The notes under the pieces are model-generated. The model ran no database searches, had not been told where the DNA came from, and saw only the letters and a list, made by a program, of their open reading frames with translations. From positions 1 to 64,000 of the forward strand of contig JAMPIB010000007.1 of the NCBI GenBank assembly GCA_023663085.1: a stretch of DNA of 64,000 bases. The letters are read 5' to 3'. This stretch comes from Ruminococcus sp. (GTDB taxonomy: Bacteria; Bacillota; Clostridia; Lachnospirales; Lachnospiraceae). The position numbers were made by a program, and so were the translations under genes. Positions 36,015 to 42,247 of the stretch are shown piece by piece (the first letter of the stretch is position 1; each line of letters opens with the position of its first letter).

Positions 36015-36043
36015 TTGCTATTTTTTTATAATGTGCATATAAT
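36015..36043 (+). promoter_or_regulatory. Sigma-A-like promoter for the structured RNA
   Basis: TTGCTA at 36015-36020 and TATAAT at 36038-36043 with a 17-base spacer. The expected transcription start, about 36050, coincides with the first base of the outer stem of the RNA described next. Confidence 0.7.
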
Positions 36044-36049
36044 AAAAAT

Positions 36050-36297
36050 GAGCGGAGGCTCCATGTAGCGGCATGATAAGCTGGACTGTACTCAGACAGG
36101 TAAAATACTGAGACGGATAGATATTCGCAAGGGTATTGAGCCCGCGCCGGGGAGAAAAGGCGAGTCCGCTCTGAGGACTGTAAAATGCAGAGACGAAAAG
36201 GTATCCGTAAGGATATTGAGGCTGACAGGCAGCATAAAACCGCTTTTCTAAACCACATGGACATCAGATGAGGGATGTATCATCTGGTGTCTTTCTG
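36050..36297 (+). ncRNA. Candidate free-standing structured RNA with tandem two-hairpin units
   Basis: About 245 bases without a convincing ORF, bounded by a promoter and a terminator. GAGCGGA (36050-36056) can pair with TCCGCTC (36165-36171). Two 41-base units, 36100-36140 and 36180-36220, are exactly 80 bases apart and match at 33 of 41 positions. Each holds a seven-pair hairpin capped by a GNRA tetraloop: GCAA at 36127-36130 and GTAA at 36207-36210. The differences inside the stem keep pairing (U-G becomes U-A or C-G), which is what selection on structure would leave. I do not recognise the family. It could be an independent small RNA or a leader of the 36343 gene. Confidence 0.6.
36260..36297 (+). 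terminator. Intrinsic terminator of the structured RNA
   Basis: Twelve-base stem GACATCAGATGA (36260-36271) with TCATCTGGTGTC (36280-36291), one wobble pair, eight-base loop, followed by TTTCTGT. It ends the RNA 46 bases before the next gene. Confidence 0.65.
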
Positions 36298-36342
36298 TAT
36301 ATCATGATAGCACATAAATATCAGTACACATCGGAAGAAAGC

Positions 36343-36765
36343 ATGTCAAAGAAAAAAGAACGAGAGAAAATTGCAGATAAAATTCAATGGCATCCTTACG
36401 AATTATGTAGACGAAAAATGAATCATATATGCGAGATTGCCGTGTTGGCAAACTCGGAAAGTTTCATTCTTAAGGAGATCATAACAAATTCCAGAACATA
36501 TCAGTTTGGTACTACGGATTTGAGATTTACATTATGCCTGAATAAAGAAGTAGACCATAATGGTTGTGAGAAAAGTTCCTGCTATGTTGTGGAATCTTTG
36601 AGAGAGGGAGACTGTTTTGCCAAAAGTGTAGAAGCATATACGATCTCACATATTTTTATGAAAGCAAATGATGAAAAGATATATAGTAAACTACTCTTTA
36701 TGGACAAGGGGTATTCTATAGAAAATATTCCCGAAGAACTTAAAAAAATAGTTCAGATAGAATGA
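36343..36765 (+). CDS. Hypothetical protein
   Basis: About 140 residues, AT-rich, no signal peptide or membrane helix, family not recognised. The start at ATG 36343 is chosen for GGAAGAAAGC just before it; an open extension to 36268 runs through the terminator hairpin. The N-terminus is strongly charged (MSKKKEREK), and the middle looks like alternating strands (FILKEIITNSRTYQFG, DLRFTLCL). It lies between the structured RNA and pseF, and its different base style suggests it is an insertion into the pse cluster. Confidence 0.6.
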   Translation: MSKKKEREKIADKIQWHPYELCRRKMNHICEIAVLANSESFILKEIITNSRTYQFGTTDLRFTLCLNKEVDHNGCEKSSCYVVESLREGDCFAKSVEAYTISHIFMKANDEKIYSKLLFMDKGYSIENIPEELKKIVQIE

Positions 36766-41104: not shown

Positions 41105-42247
41105 ATGGAAAAGTTTTTTTTAACAAATGTATCAATTAAAAAAGTCAGACATTTAAAAGACATTTCTATTCCGTTATCAGAAAAAAAGGTCAAACATTTG
41201 ATTTTTACGGGAATGAATGGAAGTGGAAAGACAAGCGTAACCGAAGCTATGGCCAGATATTTAAATAAAATTTATATTGGAGAAAGAGAAAATGCTTTTA
41301 AAAATTGTCAAAAAGAACTGGATATAAAACTCAATAATAGAATTAACGATATTCCCGCATTGGCGGAGAAATATCATTTTATCCTGGCATATTATGAGGC
41401 AGACAGAGTGTTTCGAGCGGAGCAGCCTAAACATGTTGAGAAAGTGGAATTAAAAGAATACTATGGATTAACAGAAAGCCCCCGCAATGAATTTGTGAAA
41501 TATTTGTTGGATTTAAAGATGACAGAGGCACTTGCGAGAAATAACGGCAAGACTGAGAAGGCAGATGAGATCCAGACGTGGTTTATTAAGTTAGAGGAGC
41601 TTTTACAAGAGATATTTGATGATGAAACCGTAAAATTGGAATTTGATGAAGATACTTTTGAATTTCATATTTTGCAACAAGGAAAAGAGCCGTTTGATTT
41701 TCATACCCTATCCGGCGGATATCAGGCTGTACTTGATATTGTATTGGATATCATGATGCGTATGCAATATCAGACACAGCGTTCGTTTAATTTTAATCTT
41801 CCGGGAATTGTCTTGATTGATGAAATTGAAACGCACTTGCATTTGGAGTTGCAGAAAAAAATTTTGCCGTTTTTGACTACATTTTTTCCTAATATACAAT
41901 TTATTGTGACTTCTCATTCTCCATTTATATTAAATAGTGTAGAAAATGTAGTAATTTATGATTTGGAAAAGCAAGTTCTGGTAAGAGAAGGATTAAATGA
42001 TGTGCCATATGAAGGCGTGGTAGAAGGATATTTTGAAGTAGACAAGCTGTCCCATACTTTGAAGGAAAAGTTTGAGAAATATAAGAAACTGGTTGTTAAG
42101 AAAAGATTGTCTGATGATGAATTAAGTGAAATTGCAGAGTTGGAATTATATTTGGATGAAATTCCAGACTATCTTGCGATTGGGATTTCAACAGAATACG
42201 AGAGGATAAAACTCGAATTTTTGAATCGGGAGGATATAAATGGTTAA
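41105..42247 (+). CDS. ptuA: Septu-like AAA/ABC-type ATPase (PtuA-like)
   Basis: 380-residue ATPase of the RecF/ABC class. Walker A is GMNGSGKT (36-43), the signature FHTLSGGYQAVL, Walker B GIVLIDEIETHLHLEL and the switch histidine FIVTSHSPFIL. The insertion between Walker A and signature is short, so there is no long coiled coil. Paired with the HNH gene at 42240 by an 8-base overlap, the arrangement is that of the anti-phage Septu system, where ATPase and nuclease form a complex. GGAGGAAC precedes the ATG. The name is by architecture. Confidence 0.8.
   Translation: MEKFFLTNVSIKKVRHLKDISIPLSEKKVKHLIFTGMNGSGKTSVTEAMARYLNKIYIGERENAFKNCQKELDIKLNNRINDIPALAEKYHFILAYYEADRVFRAEQPKHVEKVELKEYYGLTESPRNEFVKYLLDLKMTEALARNNGKTEKADEIQTWFIKLEELLQEIFDDETVKLEFDEDTFEFHILQQGKEPFDFHTLSGGYQAVLDIVLDIMMRMQYQTQRSFNFNLPGIVLIDEIETHLHLELQKKILPFLTTFFPNIQFIVTSHSPFILNSVENVVIYDLEKQVLVREGLNDVPYEGVVEGYFEVDKLSHTLKEKFEKYKKLVVKKRLSDDELSEIAELELYLDEIPDYLAIGISTEYERIKLEFLNREDING

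What the first reader, a model, noticed from the sequence alone, without database searches (positions are those of the whole stretch)
36050..36297. Unrecognised structured RNA with a duplicated GNRA-hairpin unit
Seen directly: a promoter (TTGCTA-17-TATAAT), a body with no convincing ORF, and a terminator. Inside are two 41-base units exactly 80 bases apart with eight differences, and those inside the stems keep base pairing. Each contains a seven-pair hairpin with a GCAA or GTAA loop, and an outer stem GAGCGGA/TCCGCTC opens the transcript. Pairing-preserving changes between copies are the signature of selected RNA structure. I cannot place it in a known family. It lies between pseG and pseF, in a spot where free-standing RNA is not expected.
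Basis: partly seen in the sequence, partly recalled or inferred. Interest (0 to 1): 0.78.

Follow-up and report, generated by a model that had tools for sequence, protein, structure and literature searches.

The report
RNA antitoxin-like gene beside PBECR4 nuclease
This is a real structured RNA with two knotted repeat units that belongs to a group of RNAs sitting just in front of PBECR4 nuclease genes, where it probably acts as an RNA antitoxin; in this genome the nuclease has lost about its first third.

Summary
Window 36050-36245 is a structured RNA with a promoter (36015-36043) and a terminator-like hairpin (36261-36290). It matches no Rfam family. A covariance model built from nine relatives, window left out, finds it end to end (E 7.6e-19). 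The relatives share two H-type pseudoknots, each followed by a hairpin; 22 of 49 pairs change on both sides without the window, 25 of 49 with it; 0 of 500 shuffles reach either.

The RNA is not free-standing. It precedes a remnant (36343-36765) of a PBECR4 nuclease (PF18813) that lacks about 67 N-terminal residues, including the invariant histidine. Of 90 scored PBECR4 places, 69 have a promoter-like and a terminator-like element upstream, against 7 of 47 control ORFs; the terminator rule alone is only partly directional. RNA types follow protein clades (11 changes, minimum 10, shuffled mean 45.4). One type is Rfam's drum RNA: 37 of 52 drum copies have PBECR4 sequence within 900 bases downstream. 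Best reading: a type III toxin-antitoxin-like cassette, disarmed here. Binding and toxicity are inferred.

The parts
36015..36043 (+). sigma-70-type promoter TTGCTA-17-TATAAT, 6 bases before the RNA's first conserved base
   Evidence: sequence; in five relatives a TATAAT-like box stands at a similar distance before GAGC/GGAC, by eye
36050..36245 (+). structured RNA (PBECR4-associated RNA, window-type subfamily)
   Evidence: blind covariance model R1 hits 36049-36245, E 7.6e-19, model positions 1-210 of 210
36050..36055 (+). possible closing stem, 5' side GAGCGG (partner 36240-36245 CCGCTT)
   Evidence: sequence; only a short GAG/CTC-like version in relatives, by eye; not counted
36062..36075 (+). 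hairpin P1 (CATG/CATG)
   Evidence: relatives mostly CGATG/CATCG
36086..36112 (+). H-type pseudoknot A: S1 CTGT/ACAG, S2 CTCAG/CTGAG, A-rich loop GTAAAATA
   Evidence: S1 is CTGG/CCAG in L148 and CTGC/GCAG in the other eight; in A8 4 of 6 S2 pairs change on both sides
36121..36136 (+). hairpin P2 (ATATTC-GCAA-GGGTAT), followed by TGAG
36145..36162 (+). hairpin P3 (CGCC/GGCG)
   Evidence: 4 of 7 pairs change on both sides in A8
36163..36192 (+). H-type pseudoknot B: S1 AGTCC/GGACT, S2 CTCTG/CAGAG, A-rich loop GTAAAATG
   Evidence: all 6 S2 pairs change on both sides in A8 (5 of 6 without the window)
36201..36216 (+). hairpin P4 (GTATCC-GTAA-GGATAT), followed by TGAG
36221..36233 (+). hairpin P5 (GCTG/CAGC), then ATAAAAC
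   Evidence: CCTG/CAGG in L148
36261..36297 (+). terminator-like hairpin with weak T tail, between RNA and gene
   Evidence: sequence; by eye a hairpin at the same place with a similar weak tail in L004, L029, L093, L108, L109
36343..36765 (+). PBECR4-related gene, 140 codons, with about 67 residues fewer before the shared HPY motif than its homologues (frame open from 36268)
   Evidence: PHROG 18856 E 6.3e-7 for the 165-residue reading; no PF18813 hit of its own

Best explanation
The RNA is the antitoxin-like half of a type III toxin-antitoxin-like cassette whose toxin is a PBECR4 (predicted BECR-fold endoRNase) protein. SHOWN by computation: promoter-like site, structured RNA, terminator-like hairpin and PBECR4 gene occur in that order at many loci; the RNA is under selection for two pseudoknot units; RNA type and protein clade are inherited together. 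INFERRED: most transcripts stop at the terminator and give abundant RNA; read-through makes a little nuclease; the pseudoknot units bind the nuclease and keep it off until the RNA is lost or outcompeted, for example during phage infection. In this genome the nuclease lacks about 67 N-terminal residues, including the invariant histidine, so the copy is probably disarmed and the RNA persists, either as a standing antidote to intact relatives or as a relic.
For: Blind model R1 finds the window RNA at E 7.6e-19 in 64 kb and 4.1e-17 in its genome. Covariation without the window: 22 of 49 pairs change on both sides, 97.0% of cells paired, 0 of 500 shuffles, slid controls 0-7 pairs; with the window 25 of 49, 94.2%, slid 2-9. 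Two strict pseudoknots in the window; of 2000 dinucleotide shuffles none has two and 19 have one; 7 of 9 relatives have two and 2 have one. PBECR4 in 29 of 391 class genomes and 35 of 77 genus genomes. Of 98 collected PBECR4 places 90 could be scored: promoter and terminator upstream in 69, against 7 of 47 control ORFs. RNA clusters fit the protein tree: 11 changes against a minimum of 10, shuffled mean 45.4, 0 of 200, 73 labelled rows; several clusters span different host families. Drum RNA (RF02958): 37 of 52 places have a PBECR4 profile match (E<1e-3) within 900 bases downstream. AbiF/RCd22, an experimentally shown RNA antitoxin, has the same layout: promoter, RNA with two motif copies, terminator, toxin, read-through (PMC12373285, abstract, section 7 and section 13 part 1).
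Against: No expression, binding or toxicity data. The window's own nuclease is truncated, so this copy may do nothing. The window RNA is diverged: a BLAST singleton, and on the MAFFT alignment its row keeps only 32 of 49 pairs with 2 gapped, partly from misplaced gaps. The window protein gives no PF18813 match. The confident predicted fold has no confident match among solved structures. 15 of 52 drum copies have no PBECR4 match, five of them a repeated orphan element in one genus. The terminator rule finds 75 of 90, but also 38 of 90 in the same stretches reversed and 54 of 90 in their reverse complements (10 of 90 after shuffling); a laxer rule finds 74-89 of 90, with 53-72 of 90 reversed and 15-22 of 47 control ORFs. 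So the hairpins are real but not every one need be a terminator for this strand. One of five covariation measures without the window (further pair types) was reached by 23 of 500 shuffles.
Confidence: 0.7

Rival explanations
1. A cis-acting leader: the RNA only controls transcription read-through into the PBECR4 gene (attenuator or riboswitch-like) and does not bind the nuclease.
For: A terminator-like hairpin lies between RNA and gene. RCd22 also acts in cis by termination.
Against: The RNA type changes with the protein clade, expected for a binding partner more than for a signal sensor. RNAs persist where the gene is gone or broken (L202; drum copies without PBECR4). Pairing between RNA and terminator was not tested.
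Confidence: 0.15
2. A guide or recognition RNA: PBECR4 is an RNA-directed nuclease and the RNA aims it, as proposed for the AbiF lineage that led to Cas13.
For: Conserved cognate RNA beside a predicted nuclease; AbiF precedent.
Against: By eye the pseudoknots and hairpins occupy most of the RNA and no hypervariable single-stranded guide segment stands out in the alignment of ten.
Confidence: 0.07
3. In this window the locus is only a decaying relic with no present function (this can be true beside the best explanation, which is about the family).
For: Truncated nuclease; long branch of the window protein (1.21); diverged RNA; remnants and orphans elsewhere.
Against: Promoter, both pseudoknots and the hairpins are intact in the window in spite of strong divergence from relatives, with the S2 stems replaced as whole pairs; the gene frame is still open.
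Confidence: 0.35

Closest known systems
Type III toxin-antitoxin systems (ToxIN, CptIN, TenpIN)
   Same: RNA upstream of a predicted RNase gene, terminator between, repeated pseudoknot units (features of the known systems from abstract starts and from recall).
   Different: Toxin is PBECR4, not annotated as ToxN-type; two separated units with extra hairpins instead of tandem repeats of about 36 bases (recalled); several RNA types.
AbiF / RCd22 (Rfam abiF RF03085)
   Same: Promoter, RNA with two copies of a motif, terminator, toxin gene, read-through.
   Different: AbiF is related to HEPN proteins; the window RNA does not match RF03085.
drum RNA (RF02958)
   Same: Drum RNA is one of the RNA types upstream of PBECR4, also at a second locus of this genome (G000:C46, 37.3 bits, below the cut-off of 43).
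   Different: The window RNA is not a drum RNA: no match.
PBECR domains of polyvalent phage proteins (PMC5512222)
   Same: Same nuclease superfamily by Pfam name; predicted active site a histidine in an N-terminal helix plus a C-terminal Ser/Thr.
   Different: Here a solo gene with an RNA in front; 'noncoding RNA' occurs 0 times in that paper's main text (passages and section 19 seen).

Membership tests
PBECR4-associated RNA, window-type subfamily (defined here, model R1) | full-length match to a covariance model built without the window | tested here: met
   E 7.6e-19, positions 1-210 of 210
PBECR4-associated RNA, window-type subfamily (defined here, model R1) | two H-type pseudoknots at the conserved places | tested here: met
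   36086-36112 and 36163-36192; 0 of 2000 shuffles with two
Type III toxin-antitoxin | RNA gene and toxin gene in one transcription unit, promoter upstream of the RNA | tested here: met
   order and promoter-like sites by sequence only: 78 of 90 scored places with a promoter-like site, 69 with terminator too; window itself; transcripts not tested
Type III toxin-antitoxin | terminator between RNA and toxin | tested here: inconclusive
   75 of 90 against 13 of 47 control ORFs, but 38 of 90 reversed and 54 of 90 reverse-complemented; the window's T tail is weak
Type III toxin-antitoxin | repeated pseudoknot units in the RNA | tested here: met
   two units, not a direct tandem array, in the window-type subfamily; other subfamilies not tested for covariation
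Type III toxin-antitoxin | toxin of the ToxN/AbiQ fold | tested here: inconclusive
Type III toxin-antitoxin | RNA neutralises the toxin by direct binding | not testable with these tools
   needs bench work
PBECR4 (PF18813) | Pfam profile match over the cut-off | tested here: not met
   window protein: no PF18813 match; related to PBECR4 proteins by protein search (E 3.2e-11) and to PHROG 18856; called a remnant for that reason
PBECR4 (PF18813) | invariant histidine of the N-terminal helix | tested here: not met
   H51 and G54 invariant in 52 homologues; that stretch is absent from the window protein
drum RNA RF02958 | gathering score 43 bits | tested here: not met
abiF RNA RF03085 | gathering score | tested here: not met

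The most novel reading that the evidence does not exclude
PBECR4 nucleases are the toxins of a large, undescribed class of RNA-antitoxin systems in the window's bacterial class (unnamed by the tools, probably Clostridia). Each protein clade carries its own RNA type (11 BLAST clusters, at least three of which hold Rfam drum RNAs), often built from pseudoknot or repeat units. The orphan drum RNA is the antitoxin of one branch. Genomes such as this one keep the RNA after the toxin is broken, as a cheap antidote to incoming intact copies.
Probability: 0.55. Interest if true: 0.87.

Novelty: new variant of a known kind. Interest (0 to 1): 0.76.

Why it matters
It gives a testable role to an RNA with no Rfam family and to drum RNA, which the passages seen in two papers name without a function. 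It ties a nuclease family whose biology I found little written about to cognate RNAs. If true, RNA antitoxins pair with one more kind of RNase besides ToxN-like and AbiF (HEPN-like) proteins. The material is plentiful: one genus sample of 77 genomes gives 71 PBECR4 matches, two of them parts of one gene.

Tried and rejected
Motif scans: a strict 32-letter pattern in viral contigs gave 0; GTAAAATNCNGAGACGNANAG in genome contigs gave 11 stretches and in viral contigs 1, none with the rest of the RNA and, by eye, mostly within coding sequence, so chance. Nucleotide search of 61 genomes gave only itself and a 32-base match that by eye lies inside a gene. Phage records: no match for the RNA or for two PBECR4 proteins. 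Rfam: no family at gathering score for the window or for L004-L007.

Rows dropped: 8 of 98 PBECR4 places were not scored (no start found, profile match starting late, or under 300 upstream bases). The 98 themselves leave out G076:C39 (no locus) and the second part of one split gene. In one search, of the 32 drum places two were already counted and two had no locus and were left out. The tree used 78 PBECR4 proteins of the 98 places (at least 150 residues, start found, distinct, no X) plus the window; 73 rows carried an RNA label. L145, whose RNA has lost one unit, was left out of A8 and A9; L202 and L205 were found after them. The outputs were cut, so the upstream stretches of some loci were scored but not read by eye.

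Not in print, as far as searched: PBECR4 (0 papers), type III new families (36, 0), EndoU-ColicinE5 (42, 4), AbiF/type III/noncoding RNA (43, 75 papers, 20 listed), ToxIN/CptIN/TenpIN from 2019 (44, 3), drum RNA or motif (45, 2), PBECR (96, 6), RF02958 (97, 4, 3 listed). I saw listings with abstract starts, the passages and the sections; none of these links PBECR4 to an RNA. The paper that I recall as the source of drum RNA is not held, no preprint server is held, and most subscription papers are missing.

Full report
What is there. A 33/41 self-match was not reached in any of 300 shuffles. No Rfam family fits.

Surroundings. An ORF follows at 36343-36765. It resembles PBECR4 proteins of four congeneric genomes (E 3.2e-11 to 1.7e-8); three of these tested match PF18813 at E 1.3e-21 or better. 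In five close homologues the shared [HK]P[YF] motif stands at residue 84, in the window protein at residue 17, so about 67 residues are missing before it. The missing stretch holds H51, one of only two positions invariant in 52 homologues. [quoted passage not shown] author name recalled and). In the model of L108 (mean pLDDT 93.2) H51 lies in the helix of residues 46-53. That it is the catalytic one is inferred. The window protein is therefore probably inactive.

The RNA class. By eye, most of the upstream stretches shown (both outputs were cut) hold an RNA-like stretch with a promoter-like site and a hairpin before the PBECR4 gene. With one scoring rule, of 98 places 90 could be scored: 75 had a terminator-like hairpin, 78 a promoter of at least 9 of 12 matches, 69 both; of 47 other ORFs in the same loci 13, 14 and 7. 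The terminator rule finds 38 of 90 in the same stretches reversed, 54 of 90 in their reverse complements and 10 of 90 after shuffling; a laxer rule is still less directional. BLAST clustering of the upstream regions puts 89 of 98 in 11 clusters of two or more; 9 places and the window are singletons. At least three of the clusters hold drum RNAs (for example L020, L036 and, through G451:C25, L096). On the protein tree (79 rows, 73 labelled) the clusters need 11 changes, one above the minimum; the mean of shuffles is 45.4 and none of 200 is as low. Near-copies help such a test, but several clusters span host families. RNA and nuclease therefore seem to travel as a unit.

Nearest relatives. By sequence and protein kinship the window RNA belongs with those of L029, L004, L093, L108, L109, L143, L144, L148 and the viral contig L155. 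The first consensus fold of six, without pseudoknots, gave 47 pairs, 11 with changes on both sides. Reading it by eye showed that the loop of one stem pairs with a stretch downstream, twice. With this structure named, the ten RNAs keep 94.2% of cells paired, 25 of 49 pairs change on both sides (shuffles 8.1 on average, 0 of 500 as high; slid versions 2 to 9), and the pseudoknot stems S2 contribute 4 of 6 and 6 of 6 pairs. Without the window the figures are 97.0% and 22 of 49, 0 of 500; one of five measures there, further pair types, was reached by 23 of 500. The structure was drawn on one of these sequences (L143), so the slid control favours it; the shuffled control ignores relatedness.

Blind test. 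Model R1, built from the nine relatives only, finds 36049-36245 over all 210 positions at 65.4 bits, E 7.6e-19; the next match in the window has E 1.5. Over 77 genomes of the genus it finds 7 places in 6 genomes: four stand before PBECR4 genes already known here, one is the window, one (L202) has lost the gene altogether and one (L205) ends near a contig edge with no clear PBECR4 match. A strict search for H-type pseudoknots finds two in the window; of 2000 shuffles none had two and 19 had one; 7 of 9 relatives have two and the other two have one.

Drum RNA. Eight of 20 sources gave Rfam drum RNA directly before PBECR4. Drum was then sought on its own: 24 places in 391 class genomes and 32 in 77 genus genomes. 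Of the 52 places examined, 37 have PBECR4 sequence (E<1e-3) within 900 bases downstream, some of it truncated and three matches weak (L060, L167, L184); two of the 37 are tandem copies before one gene. Of the 15 without, four show what looks by eye like the first codons of a PBECR4 gene (L061, L168, L172, L177), five (L066, L069-L072) are one repeated element in a single genus, and L073 is cut by a contig end.

Site. Of 11 close relatives examined, 7 have the pseG-like gene directly upstream of pseF with a gap of roughly 125-280 bases and no PBECR4 match at E<=0.1, so the cassette looks inserted here. In the other 4 no pseG match was found in the stretch held; one of them gave a 26-residue match to the window protein at E 0.03, taken as chance.

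Mechanism. The layout and the paired inheritance are those expected of an RNA antitoxin and its toxin. The nearest tested precedent is AbiF/RCd22, where an RNA with two motif copies ends at a terminator before the toxin gene, is co-transcribed by read-through, binds the toxin and neutralises it in trans (PMC12373285: abstract, section 7, section 13 part 1). ToxI pseudoknot repeats are a second parallel (abstract starts; details recalled). No expression, binding or toxicity was tested for PBECR4. Breadth outside the class is small in the sample: 3 of 299 phylum genomes match, namely the window's own genome, one of its family and one of another class, plus Lactococcus lactis among 14 controls. 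The stretch upstream of the last of the three (L197) looks drum-like by eye; Rfam was not run on it.

Named example. Butyrivibrio proteoclasticus B316 plasmid pCY360 carries WP_013283001.1, annotated as PBECR4 domain-containing; upstream lie TTGACA, a candidate RNA stretch and a GC hairpin with a T run (by eye), which makes it a candidate for bench work.

Verdict. A real RNA, a new family by Rfam's measure, and a member of a broad RNA-plus-nuclease class that I found no description of in the searches listed under Tried and rejected. I file it as a new variant of a known kind (RNA antitoxin systems), because binding and toxicity remain inferred.

Noticed in passing
L050-L073, L157-L184: Drum RNA, of no stated function in what I saw, has PBECR4 sequence within 900 bases downstream in 37 of 52 places.
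   Followed up: yes
G297 loci L069-L072 and G076 locus L066: Drum copies with nearly identical flanks and no nuclease, like a dispersed repeated element.
   Followed up: partly
G001:C25:28335-28691 (L170, L181): Two drum copies in tandem before one PBECR4 gene.
   Followed up: no
L145: A window-type RNA that seems to have lost one unit by deletion between the repeats, beside a broken PBECR4 gene.
   Followed up: no
L202 1501-1710: Intact window-type RNA and terminator-like hairpin with the nuclease gene gone: an orphan RNA.
   Followed up: partly
L043, L115, L116, L120, L124 upstream regions: Another RNA type looks by eye like two bare H-type pseudoknots of about 30 bases (GGTC/GACC with an inner stem); the strict search found one in L043, L115 and L120 and none in L116 and L124; no covariation test.
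   Followed up: no
L021 (G000:C13): A PBECR4 protein of the same genome with an open frame of 389 residues whose C-terminal part looks by eye like an acetyltransferase.
   Followed up: no
window 41105-42247 +: AAA_21/AAA_15 ATPase (family name: putative AbiEii toxin) near the pse cluster, possibly another defence gene.
   Followed up: no
window 36268-36342: The frame of the truncated nuclease is open upstream into the terminator-like hairpin (ATG at 36268).
   Followed up: no
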